Shown here: one piece after another, positions 5,688 to 44,200 of the stretch
Numbering within the stretch: the stretch's first letter is position 1
Layout of the letters: every line of letters begins with the position of its first letter
Source: a virus
Length of the DNA: 64,000 nucleotides
Direction: 5' to 3' (one strand)
Virus record (IMG/VR): IMGVR_UViG_3300029922_000001
Span: 166,512-230,511 of that record
Program-made: the position numbers and the translations under genes
The notes under the pieces: model-generated
The model's database searches: none
Told to the model about the DNA's origin: nothing
Seen by the model: the letters and a program-made list of their open reading frames with translations, nothing else

Positions 5688-5700
5688 CCGAGATAAATAT

Positions 5701-9391: not shown

Positions 9392-9406
9392 AATCCCATG
9401 AAACAA
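9377..9406 (-). promoter_or_regulatory. Promoter of the divergent gene 8991-9371
   Basis: Read on the minus strand: TTGTTT (9406-9401), an 18-nt spacer and TATAAT (9382-9377), with the ATG 5 nt downstream at 9371. It interlocks with the plus-strand Thg1 promoter, so polymerase binding to the two is probably exclusive. Confidence 0.65.
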
Positions 9407-10192
9407 GATAAAGATGCTTTAGGCAACAGAATGAAGGATCATGAACACCGAACACGGATTTTACTTCCGCGTAGAACAAATACAATGATTAGGCTTGATG
9501 GAAAAGCTTTTCATACCTTTACAAAAGGATTCAAACGTCCTTTTGATACGGATTTAATGAATATCATGAATCAAACAGCATTAGAAACATGTTCTACAAT
9601 TCAAGGTGCCAAGTTTGCTTATGTTCAATCTGATGAAATTACTATTTTGGTTACAGATTACGAAACTGATGCATGGTTTGATGGTAATATCCAGAAGATG
9701 ACATCAATTTCAGCTTCTTATGCAACATCTGCGTTCAATGCTCATTATGGTAAATACATTTACGATCAAAATCCTAGCGAGTTTGACCCCTTAAAGGTTA
9801 AAAAAGCTAATTTTGATAGCCGTGTATGGACTTTAGCTGATCCTAATGAAGTTATTAATGTTTTAATTTGGAGACAACAAGATTGTGTAAAAAATAGTAT
9901 TTCTATGGCAGCACAATCAATGTTCTCTCAGAAAGAATTGCAAAATAAGCATTCTGACGACATGCAAGAGATGATGTGGCAAAAAGGCGTCAATTGGAAT
10001 GATTATACTGTTGGCGAAAAGCGTGGTCGTTTTATCGAAAAGATTTCCACACAAAAGGATATCGAATACATAGATAAGCGAACTGGTGAAAAACATATCA
10101 AAGAAGGTGTTATTCGATCTAAATGGAAAGTCGTAGAACCACCAACTTTTTCAACAGACAAAGACTTTATTCGTCGTTTCATGCCCATTTAA
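9398..10192 (+). CDS. Thg1-like 3'-5' polymerase (tRNA guanylyltransferase family)
   Basis: 264 residues with the full Thg1 signature: KDALGNRMKDHE (5-16), the palm motif MIRLDGKAFHTFTKGF (30-45) with metal-binding D34, and YVQSDEITIL (75-84) with catalytic D79 and E80, then QKMTSISASYATSAFN. Thg1 adds G to the 5' end of tRNA-His in eukaryotes; bacterial and phage Thg1-like proteins repair 5'-truncated tRNAs by template-directed 3'-to-5' addition. A phage with its own odd tRNAs could use it to repair or finish their 5' ends, or to restore tRNAs damaged by host defence. It has its own strong, apparently leaderless promoter. Length is typical of the family. Confidence 0.92.
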   Translation: MKQDKDALGNRMKDHEHRTRILLPRRTNTMIRLDGKAFHTFTKGFKRPFDTDLMNIMNQTALETCSTIQGAKFAYVQSDEITILVTDYETDAWFDGNIQKMTSISASYATSAFNAHYGKYIYDQNPSEFDPLKVKKANFDSRVWTLADPNEVINVLIWRQQDCVKNSISMAAQSMFSQKELQNKHSDDMQEMMWQKGVNWNDYTVGEKRGRFIEKISTQKDIEYIDKRTGEKHIKEGVIRSKWKVVEPPTFSTDKDFIRRFMPI

Positions 10193-10622: not shown

Positions 10623-11744
10623 ATGCTTATAAATAGATCTATTCAATATAGATTATATCCTAACAATAAACAAATTAAATTATTATCTAATAATTTGGAA
10701 GGTTGTAGACTACTTTATAATCAAATGTTGAATCAAAGAAAAGAAGGATGGGAACAAGATAAGCAATCCTTTTCTTGTTATGATCAGCAAAAATATTTTA
10801 AAGATTATCTAGATAAACTAGAATATAATATTCATGCTCAAGTTAAACAAAATGTTGCCGTTAGAGTTGACTTAGCTTTTAAGGCTTTCTTTCGTAGAAT
10901 TAAAAATAAAGAAAATCCAGGTTATCCTAGATTTAAATCTTTTGGTAGATATGATTCATTCACTTATCCTCAAACTGATTACGGATATAAAATTAAAGAT
11001 AAACAAATATATTTATGTAAGATAGGTAATGTTAAAGTTGTTATTCATAAACAAATCACTGGATTTATCAAAACATGTACTATCAAGAAAGAAAGTGATA
11101 GATGGTTTGTTATTTTTACTTATGAAGCAGAATCAACATCTTATGAATCTTCTACTAATTTAGAGATTGGTATTGATGTAGGTTTAAAATCTTTTGCAGT
11201 GTTCTCAGATAATACAACTATTGATAATCCTAGATTCTTTAAACAAGAAGAAAAGAATATTGGAAGATTACAAAGACGAAAAGAAAAAGCTAATGGTAAT
11301 CAAAAACAAAAATTAAAGAAAGCTATTCAAAAACGTCATGCTAAAGTTAAAAATAAGAGAAAAGATTTTTGTCATAAGCTTTCGAGATCAATCGTCAATA
11401 AATATAAAATTATTTGCATTGAAGATTTAAACATTAATCAAATGAAAGAAAACATGAGATATTTATCAAAAAGTATTCATGATGCTTCTTGGAAACTATT
11501 CTTGAACTATCTAATCTATAAAGCGGAAGAAGCTGGTAGATTATTAATTCAAGTCAATCCTGCGTATACTACCCAGGATTGTAGTAAATGTGGTTATAGA
11601 GTTAAAAAGAAGCTTTCAGATCGTATTCATAATTGTCCTAATTGTGGACTCTCTATGGATCGTGATCTAAATGCTTCCCTAAACATTTTGAGAATAGGAT
11701 TATATTCTCTTGGTATTAAATCCATAGAAGATTCTTTTAATTAA
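10623..11744 (+). CDS. tnpB: TnpB-type RNA-guided nuclease (IS605 OrfB family)
   Basis: 373 residues with the TnpB layout: N-terminal wedge/REC part (MLINRSIQYRLYPNNKQIK, YNQMLNQRK), then a RuvC-like nuclease split over D185 (IGIDVGLKSF), E267 (IICIEDLNI) and D348 (MDRDLNASLNIL). A four-Cys zinc ribbon sits between the last two (C320, C323, C338, C341). All catalytic residues are intact. In IS200/IS605 elements TnpB cuts DNA under guidance of an omega RNA made from the transposon right end. No TnpA gene is present, and only 16 nt separate the stop from the convergent neighbour, so a conventional right end with a free guide region is hard to fit. This may be a solitary TnpB acting as a homing nuclease. 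Confidence 0.9.
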   Translation: MLINRSIQYRLYPNNKQIKLLSNNLEGCRLLYNQMLNQRKEGWEQDKQSFSCYDQQKYFKDYLDKLEYNIHAQVKQNVAVRVDLAFKAFFRRIKNKENPGYPRFKSFGRYDSFTYPQTDYGYKIKDKQIYLCKIGNVKVVIHKQITGFIKTCTIKKESDRWFVIFTYEAESTSYESSTNLEIGIDVGLKSFAVFSDNTTIDNPRFFKQEEKNIGRLQRRKEKANGNQKQKLKKAIQKRHAKVKNKRKDFCHKLSRSIVNKYKIICIEDLNINQMKENMRYLSKSIHDASWKLFLNYLIYKAEEAGRLLIQVNPAYTTQDCSKCGYRVKKKLSDRIHNCPNCGLSMDRDLNASLNILRIGLYSLGIKSIEDSFN

Positions 11745-12826: not shown

Positions 12827-13768
12827 TTACTCTTCGTCGGTAACATATTTTTTATGAGCAGGGTTCTCTTTTTTAAAGATTCTAGCGTAATATTCTTCAT
12901 AAGTATTAAAAACTTCTCTTGTAGTTACAACAAAGTAAATCTTTTCAATTTGAGATTCTTGGTTTTCTTCAAAATATCTTAATACAGCAGAAATTTGAGC
13001 TAAAGCACCTTGATAAACATTAAGAGTTCCGCAATCCATAGGGGTAATAACTAAACTCTTGCATTGTATACTGTCAGCTAACAATAATGAACGGTTAGTT
13101 GCAGTAGAAATGTATTTTTCTTCTGTTAATCCTCCACCACCTGATACAATAGCGTGGGCAACACTCTTGAAAGGTAATTCTGGAATATTAGATGCATCAG
13201 TGTTGTAAACATGACCCATTTTAATAGGAACACCATTTTCATTAATTCTATTAAGTTGATTTTGTAGTTTAAAACCACTTAAAGTTTGCAATACTGGATC
13301 AAGAATTTCTAATAGGTTGTTATTTGGATATACAAGCATATCAGCTTTAACCTTATAGGGAGAAGGGACTAAATGAACAGAAATTTTCACATTGTCAATA
13401 CTAGGCTTGTAGGCTTGTGGTTTTTCATCATCATTTTTACGATAAGGTTGATAATCTTCAACGACTTCATTACCAATCACAACGTCTTCTTCGGAATTCC
13501 AATCGTACATGCTGTGTAAGAAAACACAGTTCTCATATTTACCGCGACAATTTTCATCCCACTTTTCATTATTGATATAATGTTGTTTATTTGGGACAAT
13601 ATCATTAAAAACACCAATTAGAGGATTGACAAACTTTTTATTGTCTTCATCAAATTCTTCTTCCACCATGTTTTTAAAAACACAATCATATTGTGAATTG
13701 TCAAATATTACATAAAATGGACATTCTGCACATGCCTGTTGTATAGAAAGTATTTTTATTTTTTTCAT
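12827..13768 (-). CDS. Macrodomain protein with Cys-rich N-terminus (313 aa)
   Basis: Residues 1-95 carry spaced cysteines (C13, C16, C29 and two more in ENCRGKYENC), compatible with metal binding. From about residue 130 the sequence follows the macrodomain fold that binds ADP-ribose: KADMLVYPNNNLLEI, VPIKMGHVYNTDASNIPEL, then SVAHAIVSGGGGLTEEKY, LLLADSIQCKSLVITPMDCGTLNVYQG and a final YFVVTTREVFNTYEEYY. Known macrodomains remove ADP-ribose from proteins, DNA or RNA, or process ADP-ribose-1''-phosphate from tRNA splicing. In a phage, reversal of host ADP-ribosylation defence (DarT-like) is plausible. A TATAAT box 6 nt before the ATG indicates a leaderless transcript that starts just after the terminator of the upstream operon. 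Confidence 0.7.
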   Translation of the reverse strand: MKKIKILSIQQACAECPFYVIFDNSQYDCVFKNMVEEEFDEDNKKFVNPLIGVFNDIVPNKQHYINNEKWDENCRGKYENCVFLHSMYDWNSEEDVVIGNEVVEDYQPYRKNDDEKPQAYKPSIDNVKISVHLVPSPYKVKADMLVYPNNNLLEILDPVLQTLSGFKLQNQLNRINENGVPIKMGHVYNTDASNIPELPFKSVAHAIVSGGGGLTEEKYISTATNRSLLLADSIQCKSLVITPMDCGTLNVYQGALAQISAVLRYFEENQESQIEKIYFVVTTREVFNTYEEYYARIFKKENPAHKKYVTDEE

Positions 13769-21585: not shown

Positions 21586-23424
21586 TTGAATCCTAATGAA
21601 TTTGTGATTTTCCAAACTCCTAAAAAGGCAGAAGAAATTGTAACTTCTAAAGTGTATCATCATTTTGATGGATTTCTTTATGAAGTTGCGGCTACCACAG
21701 ATACATTTATGGGTATTAAGCCTAAAAACATTGAACAAGAATGCGCAATGCAATTGTTAATTGATCAAAGAATCCACATGGTTTGTTTGTCAGGAAAAGC
21801 AGGTTCAGGAAAAGCACAACCTCTATATTCTCAGGTTTTAACTCCAAGTGGATACGTTGAAATGGGTGATTTAAATAAAGGAGATTTTGTAATTGGTGAC
21901 GATGGTTTACCTGCTGAAGTTTTAGATATTTACCCACAGGGTAAAAAAGATATTTATAGAGTTTATTTTTCAGATGGCTCTTTTACAGATTCTTGTGATG
22001 AACACATTTGGTCCGTAAAAGATGAGCAGGATAGAAATTATAAAAGAGAATATCGTGATTTAGAGCTTAAAGAAATAATGAAAAAAATTAAAGGTCATGA
22101 TGGTAGAAAAAACTATTCCATACCATTAGTGAAACCTGTTATTTTTGATGAAAAACAGCATGTAATAGATCCTTATTTGTTTGGGGTTTTATTGGGTGAT
22201 GGTTGCATGAAGTTTAATGGTGTTTATTTATCCACTTCTGATAGTGAAATTTTAGAAAGTTTTAAACACTTATTGCCAAAAAACTATTATCTTCAACACT
22301 CTGATAAATATGATTATAGAATTAATAACATAAAAACACCTGGAGTTAAACAGGAAAACGTTATACAGCAAGAAATTATTAGACTTAATTTAAAAGGATC
22401 TTCTTCTATTGATAAATTTATCCCTAATGAATATAAGTTCGATTCTGTAGAAAACAGAATTAAACTACTGCAAGGACTAATGGATTCTGATGGTACTTGT
22501 GATAAATCTGGTCAGAGTATAATCTTTACAACAGTATCTTCTAGATTAGCAGAAGATATGGAGTTTATTGTCAATAGTTTGGGTGGTGTTATTAAAAGCA
22601 CCAATCAATATAAAAAATACAAATATAAAGGTGAAATGAAAATTGGTAAAAAATCTCATATATTAACTATAAGCTTGCCGATAGATATCAGTCCATTCAG
22701 ACTTAGTAGAAAAAATAATCTTTATATTAATAAATCTAAATATTTACCTTCAAGATATATTACCGATGTTGAATTTATTGGAAACATAGATTGCCAATGT
22801 ATTTATGTTAATAACGAAAGTCATAGATATGTTACAGATAATTTCATTGTTACTCATAATACAATTCTTGCTCTAGCTGCTGCAATGGATCAAATAAACG
22901 CTGGTGTCTTTAACAAAATAATTGTTATTAAACCAATTGTTCCAGTTGGTGGTAAAGATATTGGTGCTTTACCTGGTGATAAGTTTGAAAAATTAGCACC
23001 TTGGCTTGGACCTATTAGCGACAACTTCGCTCAATTATGTGGTAATTTTGGTTTTCATGGTGCAGACACTTTTGAAGCAGCAGTTAAGGATGGTTTAATT
23101 GAAGTAGAAGCAATGGCTTATATTCAGGGACGATCTATTCCTAAAACCGTTATTCTTGTAGATGAAGCACAAAACTTAACTCCTAGAGAAGCTAGAAACA
23201 TTGTGGAACGTTGTGGAGAGGGTAGTAAAATCATCTTACTTGGTGACGTTTCTCAAATTGAAAACAATTATCTTGATAAAGAAAGTTGTGGTTTAGCTCA
23301 TGCTATGAATGGTACTAAAACACAAGATATTTGCGGTTGTGTAACATTAAAATCAGTTACTAGAAGTCCTCTTGCTGCTATTGCTAGTGAGATTTTCTCT
23401 TCTCCCGAAGCACAAGGTAGGTAA
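21586..23424 (+). CDS. phoH: PhoH-family ATPase precursor containing an intein (612 aa)
   Basis: After removal of the intein (residues 77-425) the protein is 263 residues: a PhoH P-loop ATPase with Walker A split exactly between K76 and T426 (GKAGSGK / TILALAAAMD), IVIKPIVPVGG, Walker B KTVILVDEAQNLTPREA, IILLGDVSQIEN and a C-terminal SVTRSPLAAIASEIF. PhoH proteins couple ATP hydrolysis to RNA unwinding; paired with a PIN domain they act as RNA helicase-nucleases. The only good start in frame is TTG 21586, without a Shine-Dalgarno; translation could depend on coupling or read-through from the PIN gene. Activity requires protein splicing, because the P-loop is interrupted. Confidence 0.88.
   Translation: MNPNEFVIFQTPKKAEEIVTSKVYHHFDGFLYEVAATTDTFMGIKPKNIEQECAMQLLIDQRIHMVCLSGKAGSGKAQPLYSQVLTPSGYVEMGDLNKGDFVIGDDGLPAEVLDIYPQGKKDIYRVYFSDGSFTDSCDEHIWSVKDEQDRNYKREYRDLELKEIMKKIKGHDGRKNYSIPLVKPVIFDEKQHVIDPYLFGVLLGDGCMKFNGVYLSTSDSEILESFKHLLPKNYYLQHSDKYDYRINNIKTPGVKQENVIQQEIIRLNLKGSSSIDKFIPNEYKFDSVENRIKLLQGLMDSDGTCDKSGQSIIFTTVSSRLAEDMEFIVNSLGGVIKSTNQYKKYKYKGEMKIGKKSHILTISLPIDISPFRLSRKNNLYINKSKYLPSRYITDVEFIGNIDCQCIYVNNESHRYVTDNFIVTHNTILALAAAMDQINAGVFNKIIVIKPIVPVGGKDIGALPGDKFEKLAPWLGPISDNFAQLCGNFGFHGADTFEAAVKDGLIEVEAMAYIQGRSIPKTVILVDEAQNLTPREARNIVERCGEGSKIILLGDVSQIENNYLDKESCGLAHAMNGTKTQDICGCVTLKSVTRSPLAAIASEIFSSPEAQGR
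21814..22860 (+). mobile_element. Class 3 intein with LAGLIDADG homing endonuclease
   Basis: 349 residues inserted in the PhoH P-loop. It begins with Ala instead of Cys or Ser (AQPLYSQVLTPSGYVEMGD) and ends FIVTHN before Thr. The block B segment is CDEHIW with His140 and Trp142 (precursor numbering); block F is CIYVNNESHRYVTDNFIVTHN with Cys405. Trp in block B, Cys in block F and Thr at +1 are the WCT triad of class 3 inteins, which start splicing from the internal Cys. Between the splicing blocks are two LAGLIDADG-type motifs (LFGVLLGDGC and LLQGLMDSDGT), so the homing nuclease looks intact. Confidence 0.9.
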
Positions 23425-26033: not shown

Positions 26034-26576
26034 ATGAATGATGGTTTGAGAATAGAAATAATAGTTGGAGGACAATGCGAACTAATGTCTAATTTGAAGG
26101 AAGAATTTTTAAATACACTGATGGAACTTGCACCAGATGTTGATGGGTTTGATGAACAAGAAAGCATCATACATCTAGCTATCTCTAAGTATAATAAAAT
26201 TACATCTAATAAAAGGGTGAGCGGTAAGCTTACATCTAAAATTAAAGAATCACAAATTGTAGATTCGTTACTTTATGCTCTAGATACTTATGAAGATAAA
26301 TCTGTCATTGCTAATAACTCAACAAAAGATTTAGATCGTATATTAAGACAGGCTTATAGAAACTCAGATAATATTGGCTTTGACTTAGTGGATGACAATA
26401 AAGATTTACATGTTTTCTTTGACGAAGAAGGTGTTGATGATCGTGATGAAGACGTGGAAGATGATGAAAATTATACTATTCACGACGAATTGCATAATTC
26501 AGACAATAATAAACTCGAAGATTGCTTTGAGAATTTAGTTGGTGGAAAACACAGAAGTAACTGGAATATAGTTTAA
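26034..26576 (+). CDS. Acidic hypothetical protein (180 aa)
   Basis: Starts MNDGLRIEIIVGGQCELMSNLKEEF; an internal ATG at codon 18 preceded by GGAGG (12 nt) is an alternative. The C-terminal half is very acidic (EGVDDRDEDVEDDENYTIHDE). The N-terminal half is helical. Its stop overlaps the ATG of the next gene (TAATG), so the two are translationally coupled. Acidic small proteins in virion operons are often scaffold or assembly factors, but nothing specific is seen. Confidence 0.5.
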   Translation: MNDGLRIEIIVGGQCELMSNLKEEFLNTLMELAPDVDGFDEQESIIHLAISKYNKITSNKRVSGKLTSKIKESQIVDSLLYALDTYEDKSVIANNSTKDLDRILRQAYRNSDNIGFDLVDDNKDLHVFFDEEGVDDRDEDVEDDENYTIHDELHNSDNNKLEDCFENLVGGKHRSNWNIV

Positions 26577-27376
26577 TGAGTTTAATTGATTTACGTTTAG
26601 TATATGCACAGGCACAAGCGCCACAACAACCTATGCCAGAAGATCCAATGGCAGCAATGGGTGCTGACCCAATGGGAATGGGTGGAGATCCTGCAATGGG
26701 CGGTGGAGATCCAATGGCAGCAATGGGCGGTGCTGGAGGCGCACCACCAGGTGGAATGGATATGGGAATGGGTGGAGGCGGTGAAGGAACTGCTGAAATG
26801 GCAAACCCACAAGGTGCTGATCGTCAAGAAATTGGTGGACCACTAAATGAAGTTGCATTAGTACTACACGATTTTGATATTCAGCAAAAAGTAGAAACTA
26901 CAGGTAAAGATCCAGCTAAATTAGCTCAAGAAATTTGGATAGCTTATGGTGGTGATAAAACAGGTGGAGTAGTACCAGGTAGAGTAGGACAAAGAGATCC
27001 TGATCAAAATGTACCAGAGGATCAAATTGAAGCAGAAAGACAATCTACTGAAGATACTCGTTGGGATAGATTACCTAGAGGTTTAAATATTGCACAAGTT
27101 ATTTTAGGTTCAGATGATCCTCAAGATAAAGCAGATCCACAAGAAGCTTTTAATACACTGGAAAAGCTTTGCCAAGGTATGTTGATTAGTTCCGCACAAA
27201 GTTTAAATCCTGTTTATCAAAAAGCTTATGGTGCCCCACCCCCTGCTGCTGGTGGTGGAGGAATGCCTACTGCCAGTGTTAAATATTGGTATAAATTAGC
27301 AAGCAAGTATGATCGTGGTAATAAATTGCGTTCAGCCGATTTAGTAGATAGAATGCTTGCCGCTTATTTAGTTTAA
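26576..27376 (+). CDS. Met/Gly/Pro-rich low-complexity protein (266 aa)
   Basis: Residues 15-80 are a low-complexity run of Gly, Met, Ala, Pro and Asp (repeated DPMAAMG and MGMGG units). Residues 90-190 form a charged domain (LNEVALVLHDFDIQQKVETTG, LAQEIWIAYGGDK). The C-terminus is a basic amphipathic helix (SVKYWYKLASKYDRGNKLRSADLVDRMLAAYLV). The WYKLA element recurs as WYKIA at the start of the 62176-62850 protein, hinting at a shared docking signal. It is coupled to the preceding gene. Function unknown; a virion or scaffold role is a guess. Confidence 0.55.
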   Translation: MSLIDLRLVYAQAQAPQQPMPEDPMAAMGADPMGMGGDPAMGGGDPMAAMGGAGGAPPGGMDMGMGGGGEGTAEMANPQGADRQEIGGPLNEVALVLHDFDIQQKVETTGKDPAKLAQEIWIAYGGDKTGGVVPGRVGQRDPDQNVPEDQIEAERQSTEDTRWDRLPRGLNIAQVILGSDDPQDKADPQEAFNTLEKLCQGMLISSAQSLNPVYQKAYGAPPPAAGGGGMPTASVKYWYKLASKYDRGNKLRSADLVDRMLAAYLV

Positions 27377-28072
27377 TTTAAAAAATTGATCTGAATTCAA
27401 ATCATTATTAGTATTGCAGTAGCCAACATTATCTTTATTGGCATATGATGGAGTCATTGTTGTTATATGAATATCAGTCCACATAATAAGTCCCTTTGCA
27501 CCATTTCTTGCTTGGAATGTAGGGTTTCCAAAAGAAGAAGGAATAAAATAAGGATTGCCTATTACTTGATTTTGATTCATTAACGCGGTAGTTCCAAAAG
27601 CTATTGTTGATGATGGGTAAGATATTTCTTCTAAACCTACACCTTTATAAGTTAAGGTTATTGTTGGTAATTGAGGACTTAGATAAAAATAGTTATAGCC
27701 ATAACCATTAAATCCAATCCAGTCCATTATGTGATTATTAAATAATGGATCTTGATTAATAGCTTTTGATTTAGTATAAAGAGATAAAATTCCTTGATTA
27801 TAGTCTAATACACCATTTTGGTATTTAGCCCACCAAAATATAGAGGTATTGGTGGAGTCATCAAATATGGCAAATGGCATTGTGTTTTCATCATAATCAC
27901 TATTGTATAGTTGCCAAGCGTAACCGATTTGTTTTAAATTAGAGGTTGATTGCGTCATTAGTGCTTGTCTTTTGACGCTACTGAATACAGGAAACAAAAT
28001 CGCGGCTAATAAACACAAAATTGTGATTACCGTCAGTAATTCGATCAACGTAAAAGCCTGTTTTTTGTTCAT
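27368..28072 (-). CDS. Prepilin-type (pseudopilin-like) protein, 234 aa
   Basis: The N-terminus MNKKQAFTLIELLTVITIL is a type IV prepilin leader: a short basic stretch, cleavage before Phe, Glu at +5 and a hydrophobic helix (LTVITILCLLAAILFPVF), followed by SNLKQIGYAWQLYNSDYDE, the conserved segment of prepilin-like proteins abundant in Armatimonadota and Planctomycetes. A host prepilin peptidase would process it, placing it in the inner membrane or in a pilus or secretion fibre. The position before the cleavage site is Ala rather than the usual Gly. The C-terminal domain is beta-rich. A TATAAT on the minus strand about 27 nt before the ATG may be its promoter. It overlaps the end of the convergent gene by 9 nt. 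Confidence 0.85.
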   Translation of the reverse strand: MNKKQAFTLIELLTVITILCLLAAILFPVFSSVKRQALMTQSTSNLKQIGYAWQLYNSDYDENTMPFAIFDDSTNTSIFWWAKYQNGVLDYNQGILSLYTKSKAINQDPLFNNHIMDWIGFNGYGYNYFYLSPQLPTITLTYKGVGLEEISYPSSTIAFGTTALMNQNQVIGNPYFIPSSFGNPTFQARNGAKGLIMWTDIHITTMTPSYANKDNVGYCNTNNDLNSDQFFKLN

Positions 28073-28211
28073 GGTGTTGTTTTCTGAGGCAATATCTGTA
28101 TTATACCATGTTTTTCAGTCACTAATGAAATTTATTTTTTAGATTTTTTCTTAAAAATCAGTTAAAACAAGGCACAGTGATGGAAAAAATCGCTATACTG
28201 ACTTATAGAAC

Positions 28212-30122
28212 ATGAACGAAAACAAAGTTAATAAATATAATGCGTCTAATATTGAAATTCTAGACGGGTTAGACCCTGTAAAACGTCGCCCTGGAATGTA
28301 TATTGGCGATACTGGAGAAAGAGGATTTCATCATCTTTTTAAAGAGGTTCTAGATAACAGCATTGATGAAGCTATGAATGGTTATGCTACAAGCATACAC
28401 ATTAAGCTACATGATGATGAACGAACCATAGAAATTAGAGATAATGGGCGTGGAATTCCAGTTGATATTCATCCAGACCGTGGAGTTAGTGCGCTTGAAG
28501 TCATTTTAACCACTTTACATGCTGGTGGAAAATTCAATAACGATTCCTATAAGGGTGGTGCTGGTGGTTTACATGGAGTTGGTATTTCGTGTGTTAATGC
28601 ACTTTCTGAATTTTTAGAGGTTGTTGTTCAACGTAAAGGTGAAGGCGTTTTTTACCAAAAGTATGAAGAAGGTATTCCCTGTGCAGATGTTCGTAAAATT
28701 AAAGAAGCCACAGCACAAGGTACTTTGGTTAAATTTAAACCAAGTGCCAAGTACTTCAAAAGCTTAACCTTTGACGAAAACAAAATTAAAGATTTTCTTC
28801 AAGAAGCCGCATTTCTTAATGCTGGATTGATTTTAACTTTTGTTAGTAAAAAACACCCAGAAGGATTAAAATTCCAATTTTCAGGTGGTATTTCTGATTA
28901 CGTTAAATCATTAATGGTTAATGTTGATGGTGTATACCCAACTGAGCCTGTAATGATTAAAGGAAAGTTGGACACTATTTCTGTTGAAGTTGCTTTTCAA
29001 TATTCCAATAAGGATGGTGAGTATATCCATTCTTTTGCAAACAACATTAGAACTATAGATGGTGGTTCACACGTTTCTGGTTTAAAGAAGGCATTTACTC
29101 GTGTGGTTAACAATCAAGCATTAAAGCAAAATATTCTCAAGGAAAAAGATGCTAAATTAGCTGGTGAAGATATTAGAGACGGTATTTTAGCTGTCGTTAG
29201 TGTTCGTTTACCACAAGCACAATTTGAGGGTCAAACTAAAAACAAATTAACTACAACTGAAGCCGAAACAGCTTTAAATACTGTTGTTGGAGAGGCGTTA
29301 ACTACTTTCTTTGAAAAGAATCCTTCTATTCTTAAATCTATTACAGAACGTGCTATTACTAATCAGAAGGCTAAAGAAGCAGCTAAGAAAAGTTTTGATA
29401 ATGAAAAGAAAAAGGGTGTCTTAAAATATAATAGACCTGAGAAATTGAAAGATTGTATTTCTAAAAAGACAGAAGAGAGAGAATTGTTCTTAGTTGAAGG
29501 TAATTCAGCCGCTGGTAGTGCTACTGATGGTAGAGATAACTATACACAAGCTGTTTTGCCAATTAAGGGTAAGATTATTAATGCCGAAAAGACTGATTTT
29601 GAATCTCTTTTTGCTAATAAAGAAGTTCAATCACTGATCGCTTCGATTGGTACAGGAATTCAGACTGACAAAAATGATAAATTCAATATCAATGATTGTA
29701 AGTACAATAAAATCATTATTATGACTGATGCTGATATTGATGGCGCACATATTGCTATTTTACTTTTGACTTTCTTTTGGAGATATATGAAACCTCTTGT
29801 GGAAGCTGGTAAAATATACTTTGCTCAACCACCTTTATATAAAACTACCCTCGGTAAAGATATTAATTATTTTTGGGATCAAGATTTGATGCAAAAGCAC
29901 TTAAATAAAAACCCAAAGGCATTTTTAACACGCTTTAAGGGATTGGGTGAAATGAAGTCAGGAGAGCTAGGTTCTACTACAATGGATAAGCGTTTTAGGA
30001 AGTTAATTCAGATTACAGCACTTGATGCCCAACAAGCTGACGAAACATTGAGTATAGTAATGGGTAAGGATGCTGCTCCAAGAAAAGCAATGATTATAGA
30101 TTACACAAAGGATGGAAATTAA
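28212..30122 (+). CDS. Type IIA topoisomerase, ATPase subunit (GyrB/ParE-like)
   Basis: 636 residues, the usual length of ParE or a short GyrB. The GHKL ATPase has E45 and N49 (LFKEVLDNSIDEA), DNGRGIP (77-83) and GGLHGVGISCVNALS. The TOPRIM domain near 425-510 has the EGNSAAGSA glutamate and TDADIDGAHI, ending with the GyrB tail (RFKGLGEMKSGEL, TMDKRFRKLIQI). With the A subunit it makes a transient double-strand break and passes DNA through it, changing supercoiling or unlinking replicated DNA. Its stop overlaps the ATG of the A subunit (TAATG), a tightly coupled pair. A TATACT box lies 12 nt before the start. Confidence 0.95.
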   Translation: MNENKVNKYNASNIEILDGLDPVKRRPGMYIGDTGERGFHHLFKEVLDNSIDEAMNGYATSIHIKLHDDERTIEIRDNGRGIPVDIHPDRGVSALEVILTTLHAGGKFNNDSYKGGAGGLHGVGISCVNALSEFLEVVVQRKGEGVFYQKYEEGIPCADVRKIKEATAQGTLVKFKPSAKYFKSLTFDENKIKDFLQEAAFLNAGLILTFVSKKHPEGLKFQFSGGISDYVKSLMVNVDGVYPTEPVMIKGKLDTISVEVAFQYSNKDGEYIHSFANNIRTIDGGSHVSGLKKAFTRVVNNQALKQNILKEKDAKLAGEDIRDGILAVVSVRLPQAQFEGQTKNKLTTTEAETALNTVVGEALTTFFEKNPSILKSITERAITNQKAKEAAKKSFDNEKKKGVLKYNRPEKLKDCISKKTEERELFLVEGNSAAGSATDGRDNYTQAVLPIKGKIINAEKTDFESLFANKEVQSLIASIGTGIQTDKNDKFNINDCKYNKIIIMTDADIDGAHIAILLLTFFWRYMKPLVEAGKIYFAQPPLYKTTLGKDINYFWDQDLMQKHLNKNPKAFLTRFKGLGEMKSGELGSTTMDKRFRKLIQITALDAQQADETLSIVMGKDAAPRKAMIIDYTKDGN

Positions 30123-32557
30123 TGGCACGTAAAACAGCAACGGAATTATCAATACCAGTAGTAGAAAAAATAGATACATCTTCATTGCAAGATGTATTAA
30201 AAAAGAATTTTAGAATTTATGCTGATTACGTTATCTCAGATCGTGCTTTACCAGACATGAGAGACGGATTAAAGCACTCTCAGCGTCGTGTACTTATTGC
30301 TATGAAAGACTTAGGATTAGAACCAAACGGTAAGTATTCTAAGTCTGCTAAAATTTGCGGTACAACTTCGGGTGATTATCATCCTCATGGTGAAGGTGTT
30401 GTCTATCCAACTATGGTTAGAATGGCTCAGGATTGGGTTTGTAGACATTGTTTAATTGAGGGGCAGGGTAATTACGGAAATATTAATGGAGAGCCACCAG
30501 CGGCAATGAGGTACACTGAAGCAAGATTGTCACAATTTGGTAATTTACTTTTAGAAGAATTAAGTCCTACTGTTGTTGACTATATTCCCACCTATAATGA
30601 TGAAAAGAAAGAACCTGTAGTCTTACCAAGTCGATTTCCTAATCTATTGGTAAATGGTGCGTCAGGTATTGCTGTTGGTTTTTCTACTGATATTTTGCCA
30701 CATAACTATATTGAAATATCAAATTTGATTTCAGCTTATGTAAAAAACAAGAAATTAAGCGTAGATGATATAATGAAAATTATGCCAGGACCAGATTTTC
30801 CAACTGGCGGTGTCATTCGTGGACAAGATGGTGTTAAGGAATATTACAGAACCGGCAAAGGCTCTGTCGTGTTAGAAGGTGTTTATAATGTAAAGAAAAC
30901 TCCTAAAGATACACATATTATTGAAATTACAGGAGTTCCTTATCAGGTTTCCCCTGAAGCACTTACAACTCAAATCCGTGCATTATCTGATACAAAAGTT
31001 ATTGAAACCATTCTTGTAGAAGACTACTCCAATAGAAAAGAAGAAGAAATCAATATTTCTATTATTATAGAGATACCAAAACATGCAAATGTTGATAATA
31101 CTTTGGCTCATATCCTTAAAAGCACAGATTTAAGAGTTAAAATCAGCATCAATCAAACAGTTTTAATTGATAATAAGGTGGTAGAAAACGTTCCAGTCTT
31201 GAAGTTCATTGAAAGCTTCGTAGATTATCGTGTAGATATTCTTACGAAGAAATTCAAAAATGAACTAGGTGAAGTGAACGCCAGATTGCATATTATTGAA
31301 GGATTGATTAGTGCTATTAAGCACATTGATGCGGTTGTTGATCTAATTAAGAAGTCAAAATCCCCAAATGAAGCTATTGCTGGTATGATTGAGGCTAAAT
31401 ATGTGACAACTGATATTCAAGCGAAGGCTGTATTGGCGTTAAGATTAAGCAAATTGACCAGACTGGAGACTGATACTCTACTTAATGAAGAAAAGGAATT
31501 GAATTCTAGAATGGATTTTATTAATGATTTATTCTCTAATGATACAAATATTTATAATTTTGTAGTTAAAGAACAAAAAGAACTATCTAAGAAGTATGGC
31601 AATGACAGGAAAACTCAAATTTCCACACCTGTTGATAATATCGTCATCAAGGTTCCTATTATTGAAGAAAAATTCAAGATCAATGTTACTTGGGATGGAT
31701 TCGTTAAGAAACAGCTAGTCAATCAGGTTGATGTTAGTGATGGCGTTGTATTAGGTGAACAATTAGAGGATTATTCTCGTGATTATTCTGTAACTTCTTC
31801 AAATGCTTTACTTGTTTTCACAAATAAAGGCTTATTGTATCGTAAATTATGTGCTGATATTCCTTTGACAGCTAAGAATGCTAAAGGCGCACATATCCAC
31901 AATCTAATTGATCTACCTCAAGATGAACATGTTCTTGCTCATATGTTCGTGTCTAACTTCAGAGAAGATCAGTACGTAGTCATTGGCACAACCTCTGGAT
32001 TTATCAAGAAAACCTCTATTTCTGATTATGAAACCACTCAAAAGAATAGGATATTCACTTATCAACCTCTTGAAGATGGCGATGAAGTTGTTTCCCTAGA
32101 TGTAATAAACACAAATGATAGTTTAGTTTGTGTCAGTAAGGAAGGATGTTTGGTTAGATATAATGAGTCTACAATTACACCTAGACCAAGAACAGCACAA
32201 GGTGTAGTTGCTATGAAGCACATAGATAATGATTCTTTAGCGGCTGTATTTAAGGTTAATGATAAGCAGAGAATTATTTTTAATACAAGTTTAGGTTTTG
32301 TAGTTACTGTTAACGTTAAAGAACTAGAAGAAGAAACTCGTTCCGCAACACCAAAACACACAATTACGATTCAGCCAGGACGAAATGGTAATCTAACGGG
32401 AATCAAAGTGGGAGACTGTATTAAATATAAGGACGGAGAAGGTAATATTCAGATTCTGCCATTTGACGCTTGTAAAGCCACTAAGCCTATGACTGCTAAA
32501 TCTAAAACAGTTGTATTAGGTAGTAAGGTCTTAAATCCCAACGATGTCCTTCTGTAA
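30122..32557 (+). CDS. Type IIA topoisomerase, cleavage subunit (GyrA/ParC-like)
   Basis: 811 residues with the whole breakage-reunion core: RALPDMRDGLKHSQRRVLIAM, the winged-helix segment SGDYHPHGEGVVYPTMVRMAQ (83-103) and the catalytic Tyr131 in AAMRYTEARLS, followed by the tower and coiled coil and a C-terminal beta-pinwheel from about residue 530. The GyrA box (QRRGGKG type) is not seen in the pinwheel, which favours a decatenating topoisomerase IV-like enzyme. The residues at the usual quinolone contact sites are Gly92 and Pro96 where E. coli GyrA has Ser83 and Asp87. Confidence 0.95.
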   Translation: MARKTATELSIPVVEKIDTSSLQDVLKKNFRIYADYVISDRALPDMRDGLKHSQRRVLIAMKDLGLEPNGKYSKSAKICGTTSGDYHPHGEGVVYPTMVRMAQDWVCRHCLIEGQGNYGNINGEPPAAMRYTEARLSQFGNLLLEELSPTVVDYIPTYNDEKKEPVVLPSRFPNLLVNGASGIAVGFSTDILPHNYIEISNLISAYVKNKKLSVDDIMKIMPGPDFPTGGVIRGQDGVKEYYRTGKGSVVLEGVYNVKKTPKDTHIIEITGVPYQVSPEALTTQIRALSDTKVIETILVEDYSNRKEEEINISIIIEIPKHANVDNTLAHILKSTDLRVKISINQTVLIDNKVVENVPVLKFIESFVDYRVDILTKKFKNELGEVNARLHIIEGLISAIKHIDAVVDLIKKSKSPNEAIAGMIEAKYVTTDIQAKAVLALRLSKLTRLETDTLLNEEKELNSRMDFINDLFSNDTNIYNFVVKEQKELSKKYGNDRKTQISTPVDNIVIKVPIIEEKFKINVTWDGFVKKQLVNQVDVSDGVVLGEQLEDYSRDYSVTSSNALLVFTNKGLLYRKLCADIPLTAKNAKGAHIHNLIDLPQDEHVLAHMFVSNFREDQYVVIGTTSGFIKKTSISDYETTQKNRIFTYQPLEDGDEVVSLDVINTNDSLVCVSKEGCLVRYNESTITPRPRTAQGVVAMKHIDNDSLAAVFKVNDKQRIIFNTSLGFVVTVNVKELEEETRSATPKHTITIQPGRNGNLTGIKVGDCIKYKDGEGNIQILPFDACKATKPMTAKSKTVVLGSKVLNPNDVLL

Positions 32558-35908: not shown

Positions 35909-36120
35909 TTTTTTAAGTGCATTGATAAATCAATTATATGATACAGTAGTAACACGATCATTAATAATATGTATACTCGTAACGTAAAGAGAGCTAATTT
36001 AGTCCCTTTACTTAGTTTCATTAACCCTAGTTCAGCACCATCGTATTTAACTTCTGGTTCGTCAAACATTGGGTGAATAACATAAAATTCTTTATTTTGT
36101 TTCTCCAATAGTCGCTCCAA
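35905..36120 (-). CDS. Small single-pass membrane protein (71 aa)
   Basis: The frame starts with TTG at 36120, inside the 3' end of dnaK; an ATG at 36069 would give 54 residues. It has one hydrophobic helix (LALFTLRVYILLMIVLLLYHI) and short charged ends. It overlaps dnaK upstream and rnhB downstream by a few bases, so it is translated within one operon (38549 to 34694, minus strand). Function unknown; size and topology would fit a lysis accessory or inner-membrane regulator. Confidence 0.5.
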   Translation of the reverse strand: MERLLEKQNKEFYVIHPMFDEPEVKYDGAELGLMKLSKGTKLALFTLRVYILLMIVLLLYHIIDLSMHLKK

Positions 36121-37876
36121 TTTTATTTACTTTGGTTTCTGCCCAAACATAAACATCATCTGAAGCATTCTTAATTATAGCTTCAACTTCCTTTGATAGT
36201 TCACTAAGGATCTCTATATTCGTAGAATCTTTTGCATCATTTAATGAAGCAAGCATATCTTCTAATTCATCAATAAATTCTTGTGTAAATGCAGCCTTGT
36301 TATTGCGTAAGAATGATTCAATTTGAATGAGTTGTGAGAATAGAACAGCCTGACCATTTTTAATGGTCAGTTCTAATTGATCTTGTTCTTTGTGTAATTC
36401 TGCATTTTTTAGAATATCTTGAATTTCTTCAGGAGTTAATGAAGAACCACCAGTAATAAGCATTTCTACTTCAGTACCAGTGATAGCATCTAATGCTTTA
36501 ACACTTAAAATTCCATTAACGTCAATCTTAAAGGTAACATCAATCTTGGCTACGCCTCTTGGTGCTGGAGCTATTGTAAGTTTAAATTCGTCAAGTTTAC
36601 GGTTATCTTTAACATTAGGACGTTCACCTTGGAAAACTTTAACATCAACAGATTCTTGACCATCTTCATAAGTGGTAAATCTTTCAGTGAATTCATGAGG
36701 GATGGTAGTGTTTCTACGAATCATAACACTCATTAACTCTCCATAAACCTCAACACCTAAACTGAGTGGTGTTACGTCAAGTAGTAAAATATCTCTCTTT
36801 CGATTACCAGTGATCGTTGCAGCTTGAATAGCGGCACCAATTGCAACTGCTTCATCTGGATTAACACCCTTATGTGGTTCTAATCCAGTTAACTTTTTGA
36901 GTTCATCTGATACATATGGAATTCTTGTAGATCCACCAACTAAAACGATTTGATTAAGGTCTTTATAGTCTATGTGAGCATCGTTTAAAGCTTGCTTAAC
37001 GGACATTAATGTTTCAGTGATCAACGGTTTAATCATTTCGTTGAATTTAGCTCTAAACATTTTATATCTAAAGGGTTTAGCACCGAAAAAGTAAGGAATT
37101 TTAACTTCGTATGATTGGTTAAATGATAATTGCTTTTTCATTTTTTCCGCAGCTTCTCTAAGGCGAGAAAGAACTGCAACATCACTACAGTCTAAATCAG
37201 GCATTTCTTTGTTTACTTCTTTGATGAAGACATTCATAATTAACTTATCAATATCGTCACCACCTAAAGCTGTGTTACCAGCAGTGGATTTGACTTCAAA
37301 AACACCATCATCACTAAGTTTCAAAACAGTAACATCAAATGTTCCACCACCTAAATCATAGACCAAAATAGTTTCGTTTTTGTTTTTACCTAATCCATAA
37401 GCTAATGAAGCGGCTGTAGGTTCATTGATAACTCTTAATACGTTCAAACCAGCAAGTTCACCCGCAACCATTGTGGCTTTTCTTTGATTATTATCAAAGT
37501 AAGCTGGAACGGTAATAATAACATCTGTGATTTCTTCTTCTAAGAAACTTTCTGCATCATTTTTTAGCTTTCTAAGAATTTCTGAACTAATTTCTTCTGG
37601 ACTTAAAACTCTATCCTTAATCCTAAATCGTTTGTTAGTTCCCATATATCGCTTAATAGATCGAATAACATTTTCGGGAGTAAATGCCTCTTGTTCAATA
37701 GCAGAATTTCCAATAAGAACTTCTCCATCTACAATTGTGAAAACCGAAGGGGTGGTTCTGTCGCCTTCTGAATTTGTTAAAACTTCAATAGTACCATCAT
37801 CTTTAACGTGAGCTACGCAAGAAAATGTAGTTCCAAGGTCTATGCCGAGTACGGAAATATATTCTTTATTTTTCAT
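36092..37876 (-). CDS. dnaK: DnaK, Hsp70 chaperone (594 aa)
   Basis: Nearly full-length Hsp70. The ATPase domain has LGIDLGTTFSCVA (10-22), TVPAYFDNNQRKAT, NEPTAASLAYGLG, VYDLGGGTFDVTVL and VGGSTRIPYV. It is followed by a linker and substrate-binding domain (LLLDVTPLSLGVEVYGELMSVMI, FQGERPNVKDN) and a shortened helical lid. The EEVD/acidic tail of many bacterial DnaKs is absent, which explains the shorter length. It refolds or holds proteins with a J-domain partner (see 19935-20945). AAGGA precedes the ATG. The start overlaps the end of the HNH gene. Phage-encoded complete DnaK is uncommon. Confidence 0.95.
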   Translation of the reverse strand: MKNKEYISVLGIDLGTTFSCVAHVKDDGTIEVLTNSEGDRTTPSVFTIVDGEVLIGNSAIEQEAFTPENVIRSIKRYMGTNKRFRIKDRVLSPEEISSEILRKLKNDAESFLEEEITDVIITVPAYFDNNQRKATMVAGELAGLNVLRVINEPTAASLAYGLGKNKNETILVYDLGGGTFDVTVLKLSDDGVFEVKSTAGNTALGGDDIDKLIMNVFIKEVNKEMPDLDCSDVAVLSRLREAAEKMKKQLSFNQSYEVKIPYFFGAKPFRYKMFRAKFNEMIKPLITETLMSVKQALNDAHIDYKDLNQIVLVGGSTRIPYVSDELKKLTGLEPHKGVNPDEAVAIGAAIQAATITGNRKRDILLLDVTPLSLGVEVYGELMSVMIRRNTTIPHEFTERFTTYEDGQESVDVKVFQGERPNVKDNRKLDEFKLTIAPAPRGVAKIDVTFKIDVNGILSVKALDAITGTEVEMLITGGSSLTPEEIQDILKNAELHKEQDQLELTIKNGQAVLFSQLIQIESFLRNNKAAFTQEFIDELEDMLASLNDAKDSTNIEILSELSKEVEAIIKNASDDVYVWAETKVNKIGATIGETK

Positions 37877-38549
37877 TGTGTAGTTCCTTGTACAATAAAA
37901 TTAGTTCTGAAATAACTTTAATCCAACTATCTCTATTATAATTAGTTTTTGAGTGACATGAATAACACAAAGGTATAAGATTTTGTTCTGTGCAATTTTT
38001 TTTATTATAATCTATATGATGCACAGCTAATCTAACATTATTTTTATTGCATATTAAACATTTATTATCATATGTCTGTTTTATGTGAGTTTTTAATTTT
38101 TTTGTCCATTCTTTGGAATATGGTTCAAATGAAGTTCCTCCTTTCCAATTTGGATGATTTTCACCACTTAGTGAATTTTGACAAAGCAATTCATATTGTT
38201 TACTTGTATATGCCCATTTACCCTTTTTAGATTCACTTAGATGTTTTTTAGTTTCATCAGAATGTTTTTTTGAGAAAAAATGATTTAATTCACCAATTCT
38301 GGGGTTTTTAATTAAATAAGTTTTTAAACTCTCACTGATTTTTTGAGACACTTCAGGGCGACAGGATGGATTGTTTTCTCCGCTTACCTGTTTAGAACGT
38401 TTTTGACGTATTTCTTTTGCTCTTTGTTTCCCTATTCTTTCTTCCCATGTTATTTGAGATTGCCACTCTTTTTGACAATTTTTTGAACAAAATCTTTGTT
38501 TATTTTTTCTTTCAAATTCATTATTACATTTTTCACATATTAACATCAT
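37866..38549 (-). CDS. HNH homing endonuclease with NUMOD3-like repeats
   Basis: 227 residues. The N-terminal zinc finger is CEKCNNEFERKNKQRFCSKNC; then come DNA-binding repeats of NUMOD3 type (SGENNPSCRPEVSQKISES, HFFSKKHSDETKKHLSESKKG, GENHPNWKGG). The C-terminal HNH is CLICNKNNVRLAVHHIDYNKKN ... NLIPLCYSCHSKTN with both zinc Cys pairs. This is the architecture of free-standing phage homing nucleases. It lies directly before dnaK, its end overlapping the dnaK start by 11 nt, with a dnaK-like coding relic on its other side (38572-38628). It is more AT-rich and Lys-rich than its neighbours, as mobile genes often are. Confidence 0.9.
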   Translation of the reverse strand: MMLICEKCNNEFERKNKQRFCSKNCQKEWQSQITWEERIGKQRAKEIRQKRSKQVSGENNPSCRPEVSQKISESLKTYLIKNPRIGELNHFFSKKHSDETKKHLSESKKGKWAYTSKQYELLCQNSLSGENHPNWKGGTSFEPYSKEWTKKLKTHIKQTYDNKCLICNKNNVRLAVHHIDYNKKNCTEQNLIPLCYSCHSKTNYNRDSWIKVISELILLYKELHNEK

Positions 38550-41245: not shown

Positions 41246-44200
41246 ATGGCGAACAATAAGGGCAAAAAAAACGTGGGCGAACAAAATACTTTCAACGATG
41301 ATAATGTACTAGTTGACGAATTAGTTAGTAGTAAACAGGTTGAAGTTGAAACAACTGAAGAACCAAACGTTCAAGCAGAATCGTTAGATTTTACTATGCA
41401 GTCTGGTACTAGTGAAGGTACTGGTATTACATCTGATCCTACTACCAGTAATGGTGGTGTTATTTCTAAAGATATTGAAATAATTACTAGCTGGGTTAAT
41501 GGTTCCTTTGGTTCTACTGCCGCTGCCTATAGCTCTCTTGATTTTAAAATATCTAGAACTACAGATACTGAGCCAGTAACGACAGGCGAAGTTAAGGTTT
41601 CTTTATTTAATCATGGTGAGTGGCCCTCCACTCGTACTTCGTGGACAAACAACCCTAACTTACCAGTTTTAGCAATTGGTGGTTCTTGGAATAATGCAAG
41701 TACTGGTGCTACATCCTTTACATTAAGCGCCCCAACAGTTGGTGGATCTTTTGTTTATGGTGGAGCTAGTGGAGCGGGTTCAACATGGACTGGTATTGCA
41801 CCTACAATTTATCTAAAGCCATTTGATGGCACTGTTGAAGCATCAAACTTTGTCGCAATTGCACAACCTGCTGGTGGCGCACCAAACTCAGGTAGTGCTG
41901 GTACCTTTAATGGTTTAGTTTTAACTAATAACACTACTGGATTTGCAATGTATGGTGGAACTTCAACTGAACTTGGTCATGGACAAACAGCCGCAAATCA
42001 AATAACATTTTATAGTGGAACTTCATTTGGTTCTGGTGGTTCAACAGGAAGTGTAATAACATTTAACAGCAATTTAACCATTGGTAGTGCTGGTGCCCTT
42101 ACTCTTAACCCAGCTTCTGGTGGTTCAACTGTTACTGTACCTGCTACTGGAACCTTAATCACTTCTACCCCTGCTGGTCAGCAACTTATTTCAGGTGCCG
42201 CATCTTCTGCTGGTTTAAGACTTCAACCAAGTGCCACAGGTACTCCAAATATTGCAGAATTTTATGGTGCTACAGCTACATTAGGTACTTTAACTGTTGT
42301 TGCTAATGGTGGCACTTCAACAAACGCAAACTCAGCATATATTAGTCAAAATGCTGTATTTTTTGGTGATGGATCTGGATTAGTTAACATTGTACCTGCT
42401 GGATTTAATGGTATTTTACCAATGAATAAAGGTGGTACTGGAGCAAACCTTACTGGTAATGCTGGTGCTATCGTTTATACTAATGGTACAACCACAATGG
42501 CGATTAACTCTCCTGCTGGTTCTGCTGGTATTCCTTTATTGTCAGGAACTTCTGGTACAGGAACACCAACGTTTACAGCATTAAGTTTGGCTGGTGGTTC
42601 TTCTGTTGTAACAGGTACATTACCAATTGGTAATGGTGGAACAGGTACAGCATCAGCACCAACTCAATACGGTGTAATTTATGCTACTACAACTTCAGCA
42701 TATGCATCTACTGCTGCTGGTACTACAACTACAGTATTAATTGGTAACGCTGCTGGTTCCCCAACTTTTGGAGCAGTTGTCTTAACTACAATGGTTTCTG
42801 GTACTTTGCCTATTGCTAATGGTGGAACTAACTCTACTACTGCTGCTTCTGCTGGTGCGGTAATTTATTCTTCTGCTTCCGCATTCTTACCTAATACCCC
42901 TGCTGGTTCTGCTGGTATTCCACTTGTATCAGGAACTTCTGGTACAGGCGCACCAACATTTTCAGCATTAAACTTAGCTGGTGGAACTTCTATAATTACT
43001 GGTACCTTACCAGTTGGTAATGGTGGAACAGGCGCTTCATCTTTCTCTTCCACTAACTCATTAATAGTTTCAGGTTCAACTTCTACTAATCCGCTTACTA
43101 CAGTTACTGGTGCGGCAGGATTGCTTTATGGAACCGCTGCCAATACAGCCCCAACATTTGTAACATCAGTTGGTACCGCTATGACATTCACTGCTGGTAT
43201 AACTTTGAATGGTGGAACCAATAGTGTAACCGTTACACCAATTAACTCTACAGATATTGTCAATAAAGCTTATGTTGATAATGTAGCACAAGGTATTTCT
43301 GTTCGTGGATCAGTTAGAGCTTCATCTGTACCAACATTTGAATCATTAATTGGTGGTTTACTATTGGGTGGTGGTATTAGCAGTGCTTGGTATACCAACT
43401 CTACTATTACATGGAATAGTGTTACTTACACTGGATATATTACAACCACTGTTACAACTACTAATAATACACCAGGTACTTCAGCCGTTACTTCTGGTGG
43501 TATCTATACAGGATTTGACTCACCTAGTGGAACTTCATCAGCATTGAACTTAGGTGATCGTGTCTTAATTAAAGATTTCTCCAACTCTGCTACATATAAT
43601 GCAATTCCAGGTACATTGCGTTCTTCAGCTAATGGTATTTATGTTGTTGTAACCACTGGTGGTGGTGGACCTAATTATACTATCGCTTTTGCTCGTGCGT
43701 TAGATTGTACAACCGCCGCTCAGTTAAGTGAAGGTGTATTCACGTTTATAGACGAAGGAGCAACTGAAGCTGAAACTGGTTGGATTCAAGTTGATAATAC
43801 TTCAGTTATTAATCCTGCGTCAGCCGCAGCAAGTGCCGCTGTAACACCACAGTTTACTCAATTTACTGGTGCTGCTGATGTTACTGTTGTTATGGGACTT
43901 CAAAAGAGTACCAATACTATAGGTGCTAATGTTAATATAACATCTGGATCAACAACATTTAGTTTAGGTGGTAATGCTGTTTCTCCGTTCTCTAATAACA
44001 CTAATCCAACATTTACAGTAACTTCAGCATCTGCCGCAACACTCACATTAACACAGAATACATCAGGTTGGTCATTAGCAGCGGGTAGTACAAACGTTAA
44101 TACATTAACATTGAGTCAAGCTGGAACTGCAACCTATACAATTGCTGGTACTGGTGGAACGTTAACAATTTCCAACTCAGCTTCATTAACTGCTACAAAT

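What the first reader, a model, noticed from the sequence alone, without database searches (positions are those of the whole stretch)
27368..28072. Prepilin-type protein encoded by a phage
A complete type IV prepilin leader with FTLIELLTV and the SNLKQIGYAWQLYNSDYDE segment is typical of cellular proteins in Armatimonadota and Planctomycetes. In a phage it could alter or plug host pili or secretion fibres used as receptors, or block superinfection. It is also the best host clue in the window.
Basis: partly seen in the sequence, partly recalled or inferred. Interest (0 to 1): 0.66.

Follow-up and report, generated by a model that had tools for sequence, protein, structure and literature searches.

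The report
Orphan prepilin gene in huge phage
A very large bacterial virus carries one gene for a pilus-type protein like those some bacteria make in large numbers, and related viruses keep similar genes, which suggests it is used to remodel the surface of the infected cell.

Summary
Window 27368-28072 (-) encodes a 234-aa prepilin-type protein with an intact class III leader (MNKKQA|FTLIE). It lies in a 441,498-bp virus record and is that record's only prepilin hit. Its whole length aligns with prepilin-like proteins that Lentisphaerota/Verrucomicrobiota encode in tens to hundreds of copies, but the C-terminal H-X9-DG motif is degenerate. A chimera or stray capture is unlikely: two other huge-phage contigs (379 and 479 kb) carry its closest relatives (43% and 36% identity) and share its terminase. 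Unrelated T4-like phages carry cousins, one group near the Gp23 capsid gene, with dN/dS 0.05-0.17 in the 9 of 15 pairs with dS under 1.5. None of 16 viral records searched encodes a prepilin peptidase, and none of 7 an assembly ATPase above cut-off, so processing must rely on the host. Most likely it is an 'orphan prepilin' inserted into the host envelope and co-assembled with host type IV-like filaments to change the surface (receptor masking or superinfection exclusion). Identity is well supported; the purpose is inference. Armatimonadota or Planctomycetes as host is not shown: neither phylum could be searched, and the cellular relatives found are Verrucomicrobiota-type.

The parts
27368..28072 (-). 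prepilin-type gene, 234 aa
   Evidence: full-length relatives
28055..28072 (-). codons of the class III leader MNKKQA; predicted cleavage between A6 and F7
   Evidence: sequence; PF07963 match residues 1-27. Cleavage position is inference from the family motif
28040..28054 (-). FTLIE, mature residues +1 to +5, with the conserved glutamate E+5
   Evidence: sequence; F7 T8 L9 E11 invariant in 18 sequences
27896..28048 (-). long N-terminal helix, residues 9-59, including the SNLKQIG segment
   Evidence: AlphaFold2 model, block pLDDT 83-95 from residue 11 to 70
27461..27508 (-). degenerate H-X9-DG region, residues 189-204 (RNGAKGLIMWTDIHIT)
   Evidence: aligned with RHxxxxNIxWxDGHV of bacterial relatives; D200 and H202 kept, H to N and G to I changed
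28100..28108 (-). candidate extended -10 promoter TGGTATAAT
   Evidence: sequence; pattern count not above chance in the window (11 found, mean 8.07 in shuffles), so suggestive only
26576..27376 (+). neighbour, 266 aa, overlaps the prepilin tail to tail by 9 bp; no confident family
28212..30122 (+). GyrB-type topoisomerase gene, divergent from the prepilin across a 139-bp gap
30122..32557 (+). GyrA-type topoisomerase gene

Best explanation
A functional phage gene encodes one orphan type IV prepilin-like protein. Shown: intact leader, full-length kinship to bacterial prepilin-like proteins, closest kinship to genes of related huge phages, selection to keep such proteins in other phage lineages, no prepilin peptidase found in the phage record. 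Inferred: after translation the host membrane-insertion machinery places it in the inner membrane, the host prepilin peptidase cuts A6|F7, and E+5 lets it dock into a host type IV pilus-like or pseudopilus filament. Its divergent C-terminal domain then changes the filament or envelope, most likely to stop further phages adsorbing or to mask receptors on the infected cell and its debris. The identity (functional phage prepilin) I hold at about 0.9, the host processing and insertion at about 0.75, the whole chain to surface masking at the figure given.
For: Leader and family models. Full-length alignment with 17 bacterial proteins. Two huge-phage contigs with the closest relatives, 43% and 36% identity, sharing TerL with the window's phage at 40-42%. 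TerL-led check: 2 of 28 contigs of 20 kb or more carry an N_methyl gene, and G243, also in the TerL list, carries one. dN/dS 0.05-0.17 in the 9 of 15 viral prepilin pairs with dS under 1.5. No prepilin peptidase in 16 of 16 viral records; no T2SSE ATPase above cut-off in 7 of 7. In a T4-like group the gene lies near Gp23 capsid and/or head-tail adaptor genes in 17 of 23 loci, which suggests late expression there. The only three entries returned by the structural second look are type IV pilins, best Z 5.2.
Against: No experiment, expression or host data. Foldseek itself found no significant match and the model is middling (mean pLDDT 69.5, C-terminal parts under 50). The receptor/exclusion role rests on analogy. 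In the window the gene lies beside topoisomerase genes, not recognised structural genes, so timing is unknown there. Most TerL-clade contigs tested (26 of 28, mostly fragments) show no prepilin. Selection was measured on other phages' prepilins, not on this gene.
Confidence: 0.42

Rival explanations
1. Host-supporting auxiliary gene: the phage tops up or swaps a host pseudopilin or pilin so that the infected cell keeps attaching to particles or secreting polysaccharide-degrading enzymes during a long infection.
For: Bacteria of this family keep very many paralogues (150 scored matches in one genome). The bacterial relative L028 sits among heparinase-like and glycoside-hydrolase-like genes, named only from reading the sequences.
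Against: Nothing ties the phage copy to secretion or feeding; neighbours differ between phages; no peptidase or assembly ATPase goes with it in the records searched.
Confidence: 0.25
2. Virion or lysis part: the prepilin-type N-helix serves as a membrane anchor for a phage protein used in morphogenesis, lysis or exit, with no role in host filaments.
For: In one T4-like group the gene lies in the head/neck module; in contig L037 it is in one frame with a DUF6580 domain.
Against: Cleavage-motif residues and E+5 are kept, and the C-terminal domain stays like the cellular family, which a bare anchor would not need.
Confidence: 0.15
3. Passenger gene picked up from the host and not yet lost.
For: Degenerate H-X9-DG motif; own transcription unit on the opposite strand to its neighbours.
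Against: Codon usage and GC3 ordinary for the window (rank 19 of 54 from the least typical); related phages keep homologues; other phage lineages show strong purifying selection.
Confidence: 0.08
4. Assembly chimera or bacterial contamination.
For: None found; reads could not be checked.
Against: Flanked on both sides within the same virus record, ordinary codon usage, closest relatives in two other huge-phage contigs with the same TerL type.
Confidence: 0.02

Closest known systems
Prepilin-like proteins of Lentisphaerota/Verrucomicrobiota with the C-terminal RHxxxxNIxWxDGHV motif (H-X9-DG type; family name recalled)
   Same: Leader, N-terminal helix with SNLKQ segment, GYGYN core motif, overall length and order of motifs
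   Different: 23-31% identity to the 17 aligned; H of RH is N and G of DGH is I; the common cysteine pair is absent; encoded by a phage as a single copy
DUF1559 / SBP_bac_10 (PF07596) planctomycete proteins
   Same: Same leader and similar SNLKQIG segment; some viral cousins do match PF07596 (L070, L083)
   Different: The window protein has no PF07596 match at E 0.01
GspG major pseudopilin (TIGR01710) and GspH/ComG minor pilins
   Same: First 50-60 residues
   Different: Far below curated cut-offs (31.8 against 88.85 bits for GspG)
PHROG phage families with prepilin N-termini (phrog_27437, 11263, 11596, 13280, 10597; phrog_3433 'pilin', class moron)
   Same: Phage-encoded; match within the first 52 residues
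   Different: No match to the rest of the protein; no tblastn match in 50,697 reference phage records
Phage morons that alter type IV pili or exclude superinfection (known from Pseudomonas phages; recalled, no call)
   Same: Proposed outcome
   Different: Those are not prepilins; the mechanism here would be subunit mimicry

Membership tests
Type IV prepilin-like (class III leader) proteins | Short basic leader, G or A at -1, F at +1, E at +5, hydrophobic helix | tested here: met
Type IV prepilin-like (class III leader) proteins | Pilin fold: long N-terminal helix plus C-terminal beta domain | tested here: inconclusive
   AF2 model has helix 9-59 and strands but mean pLDDT 69.5; VIA second look gives PilA4 Z 5.2, 116 aligned, rmsd 3.4, then two more type IV pilins; Foldseek nothing significant
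Type IV prepilin-like (class III leader) proteins | Cleavage and N-methylation by prepilin peptidase | not testable with these tools
   No peptidase of its own in the record; host unknown
H-X9-DG prepilin-associated proteins | Intact H-X9-DG motif | tested here: not met
   RNGAKGLIMWTDIHI at the motif; the L036 and L037 relatives have the H and DGH intact
H-X9-DG prepilin-associated proteins | Full-length homology to proteins bearing the motif | tested here: met
DUF1559 (PF07596) | Match to the Pfam model | tested here: not met
   threshold E 0.01
GspG major pseudopilin | TIGR01710 over cut-off | tested here: not met
   31.8 bits against 88.85
Superinfection-exclusion or pilus-altering phage moron | Changes host pili or adsorption when expressed | not testable with these tools
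   No experiment

The most novel reading that the evidence does not exclude
Orphan prepilins are a recurrent, so far undescribed class of phage effector. Huge phages and T4-like phages of bacteria with very large prepilin families have repeatedly captured one or two family members and keep them under purifying selection as Trojan subunits: processed by the host peptidase and built into the host's own filaments to rewrite the cell surface for the phage. The same trick would have arisen several times.
Probability: 0.3. Interest if true: 0.75.

Novelty: new variant of a known kind. Interest (0 to 1): 0.5.

Why it matters
The cellular family belongs to the largest unexplained paralogue sets known to me in PVC-type bacteria: 150 scored matches in one Lentisphaerota genome, and, for the related DUF1559, 68 paralogues in Planctopirus limnophila with two of them essential (passage in PMC10632474). 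Phages that carry and conserve a single member offer a handle on what these proteins do at the cell surface, and a possible new route by which phages reshape host envelopes. The same genes may help to link huge uncultivated phages to hosts once other phyla are searched.

Tried and rejected
Relatives by the window protein alone: none in 50,697 phage records, plasmids or viral contigs with query-derived patterns; the alignment-based scan was needed. The L036 and L040 prepilins also had no match in the phage records. The neighbour 26576-27376 gave no relatives. GyrA led to one distant virus, G255, without a prepilin. One common origin of all viral copies: not supported in the 49-row tree (6 label changes; starred branches force at least 2). 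Monophyly of the window protein with L036b and L037: 97/50 in the 49-row tree; in the 26-row tree the long-branched bacterial L028 falls inside the group (P0001 with L028, 84/69), the group with L028 has 96/95, and holding the three together is not rejected (p-AU 0.48). L028 as a hidden phage gene: rejected, its surroundings read as a bacterial chromosome, and G094 has no match to the phage TerL (which the tool warns shows little). Foldseek against PDB and BFVD gave nothing significant. Promoter: TGNTATAAT is not enriched in the window. dN/dS gave no value for 2 of 15 pairs (saturation) and the 4 with dS above 1.5 (values 0.04-0.16) are set aside as near saturation. A second, larger alignment was made but not folded.

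Literature: searches listed no paper that I recognised as describing phage-encoded prepilins of this type; one search was swamped by general virome papers and one search listed one paper on thaumarchaeal mobile elements (PMC6563490, seen only as listing, two uses of 'prepilin', not read), so absence from print is only as strong as those searches. For PMC10632474 and PMC2754498 I saw passages; for PMC12619734 and PMC7162821 I saw passages, and their main texts hold no word beginning pilin, pilus or pili; the rest I saw as search listings.

Full report
Observation. The ORF at 27368-28072 on the minus strand is real: 234 aa, ATG to TAA, no internal stop. It passes the curated cut-offs of PF07963 and TIGR02532. 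The quoted leader and SNLKQ segment are there. The window is part of a 441,498-bp virus record, in which this is the only N_methyl match. It stands alone on the minus strand, overlaps the preceding gene tail to tail by 9 bp and is divergent from a GyrB-type gene. Its codon usage and GC3 are ordinary for the window (rank 19 of 54 from the least typical by codon likelihood).

Kinship in bacteria. One Lentisphaerota genome (L003, G001) gave 150 scored matches out of 322 first-look candidates. In 240 genomes drawn from its phylum, 11 had matches at E 1e-15 or better, the best 74.5 bits at 30% identity over residues 3-219. An alignment with 17 of these proteins runs the whole length. Bacterial members carry RHxxxxNIxWxDGHV near the C-terminus; the window protein reads RNGAKGLIMWTDIHI there and lacks the family's usual cysteine pair. 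A profile of three phage proteins found 3 of 288 genomes of one class at E 1e-24 or better, the best 95.8 bits. That a phrase like FPVFxQA(K/R) is an Armatimonadota hallmark is my recall and comes from no call.

Kinship in phages. With the alignment, a scan of viral contigs gave 387 stretches, 206 confirmed relatives, 80 kept. Two stand out: L036 in a 378,848-bp contig (38% over 4-234, E 5e-41) and L037 in a 478,840-bp contig (37% over 2-207, E 2e-31); aligned identities are 43% and 36%. L036 has two tandem prepilin genes downstream of a GroEL-like gene, named from reading the sequence. In L037 the prepilin is in one frame with a DUF6580 domain, though an internal ATG just before the leader allows separate translation. 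A profile from the three proteins found these two and three weaker loci.

Same phage clade. The window phage's terminase (L122, 720 aa) has relatives in G241 (L036), G242 (L037) and G243 (L083) at 39-42% identity, and none in 9 other viral records tested. To avoid choosing phages by their prepilin, I scanned for the terminase: 172 relatives, 80 kept. Of the 29 kept contigs of 20 kb or more, G243 (L193) had already been searched and I gave the other 28 to the N_methyl search; 2 of 28 matched, G266 (315,852 bp) and G280 (113,559 bp). With G243 this is 3 of 29, and 2 of the 2 contigs over 300 kb. The two fragments of 169 and 178 kb had none. So the gene type is common but not shown to be universal in the clade. 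The G266, G280 and G243 proteins belong to a different branch from the window's.

Other phages. Cousins occur in T4-like phages. In L052 the prepilin lies between a Gp23 capsid gene (PF07068, E 7.9e-75) and a head-tail adaptor gene (phrog_211), in the order seen. Of 23 loci in this group, 12 carry the capsid gene and 15 the adaptor within the fetched stretch, 17 at least one; 6 carry neither there. Near the L070 prepilin is a DNA polymerase and near that of L057 an rIIA-type gene; of the ten neighbours tested there, the two each from L064 and L083 had no PHROG match. Of 15 pairs of viral prepilins compared, 13 gave a dN/dS value, 0.04-0.17; in the 9 with dS under 1.5 it was 0.05-0.17; 2 were saturated and gave none. 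Several pairs share sequences, so they are not all independent. No pair includes the window gene, whose relatives are too distant.

Dependence on the host. Prepilin peptidase PF01478: 0 of 16 viral records, with the model ringing in 12 of 14 control genomes. T2SSE ATPase PF00437: 0 of 7 records over cut-off, weak sub-threshold hits in 5. N_methyl genes: 1-2 per record in 15 of 16 (14 of those 15 were picked from the prepilin scan, G000 is the window's own record, and G255, picked by GyrA, had none). These are orphan prepilins that would need host processing and assembly. The records may be incomplete, so absence is as found in them.

Structure. AlphaFold2 with 19 sequences gave mean pLDDT 69.5, a confident helix 9-59, and a poorly resolved C-terminal domain. 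Foldseek found nothing significant in PDB or BFVD. The VIA second look at 87 chains returned three entries, all type IV pilins, the best PilA4 of Thermus at Z 5.2, rmsd 3.4, 116 residues. By the tool's own caution Z under 8 is weak; I count it as consistent with, not proof of, a pilin fold.

Trees. In 49 rows the window protein groups with L036b and L037 (97/50) and the bacterial L028 (96/87). Viral rows need 6 label changes against 15.4 in shuffles; well-supported branches force at least 2. In 26 rows the group with L028 has 96/95, L028 sits inside it on a long branch, and a clade of the three phage proteins is not rejected (p-AU 0.48). L028 lies in a bacterial chromosome region with heparinase-like and PEP-CTERM-like genes (names from reading). 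Capture from bacteria on more than one occasion is the simplest reading; direction is inferred.

Mechanism. Shown: leader, helix (predicted), kinship, conservation in phages, no processing genes found. Inferred from type IV pilus biology: membrane insertion, cleavage, docking through E+5. Inferred with less confidence: the outcome. Location in a head/neck module in one lineage suggests late expression and hence protection of progeny or exclusion of rivals; in the window no timing evidence exists. Rivals are set out in their field.

Known or new. PHROGs lists phage families that match within the first 52 residues, one called pilin and classed as moron, so phage prepilins as such are not new. 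Full-length members of this bacterial family in huge phages, kept in a clade and recurring in T4-like phages, I did not find described in the nine paper searches named under Tried and rejected.

Noticed in passing
window 5617-5689 (+): ARAGORN calls a tRNA with anticodon CTA (labelled tRNA-Pyl), a possible TAG suppressor; stops of 54 window genes are TAA 47, TGA 6, TAG 1.
   Followed up: partly
window 21586-23424 (+): Gene whose product matches PhoH and, upstream of it, LAGLIDADG_3; may hold an intein.
   Followed up: no
L130-L133 (G242, G241): Terminase genes of G241 and G242 are interrupted in frame by roughly 330 residues at the GKS motif, intein-like, while those of G000 and G243 are not.
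   Followed up: partly
window, upstream of 8991-9371(-), 9398(+), 12827-13768(-), 23474(+), 37866-38549(-), 57891(+): TATAAT lies 11-15 bases before the start codon, which would give leaderless mRNAs; 11 of 54 genes have TATAAT within 60 bases upstream, 2.9 expected from window density but 5.6 from shuffles of those regions.
   Followed up: partly
window 36092-37876 (-): Protein of phrog_22485, hit at 40-50% identity in 484-735-kb uncultured phages, with one hit record annotated DnaK; links this phage to other huge phages.
   Followed up: partly
L037 9491-10771 (+): DUF6580 domain and prepilin in one open frame.
   Followed up: partly
window 9398-10192 (+), 10623-11744 (+), 12827-13768 (-): Thg1-type tRNA guanylyltransferase, IS605 OrfB/Cas12f1-like gene and a macro-domain protein.
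   Followed up: no
window 41246-46444 and 46731-51953 (+): Two giant ORFs (1732 and 1740 aa) in the most GC-rich part of the window (about 0.40); the second has no PHROG match.
   Followed up: no
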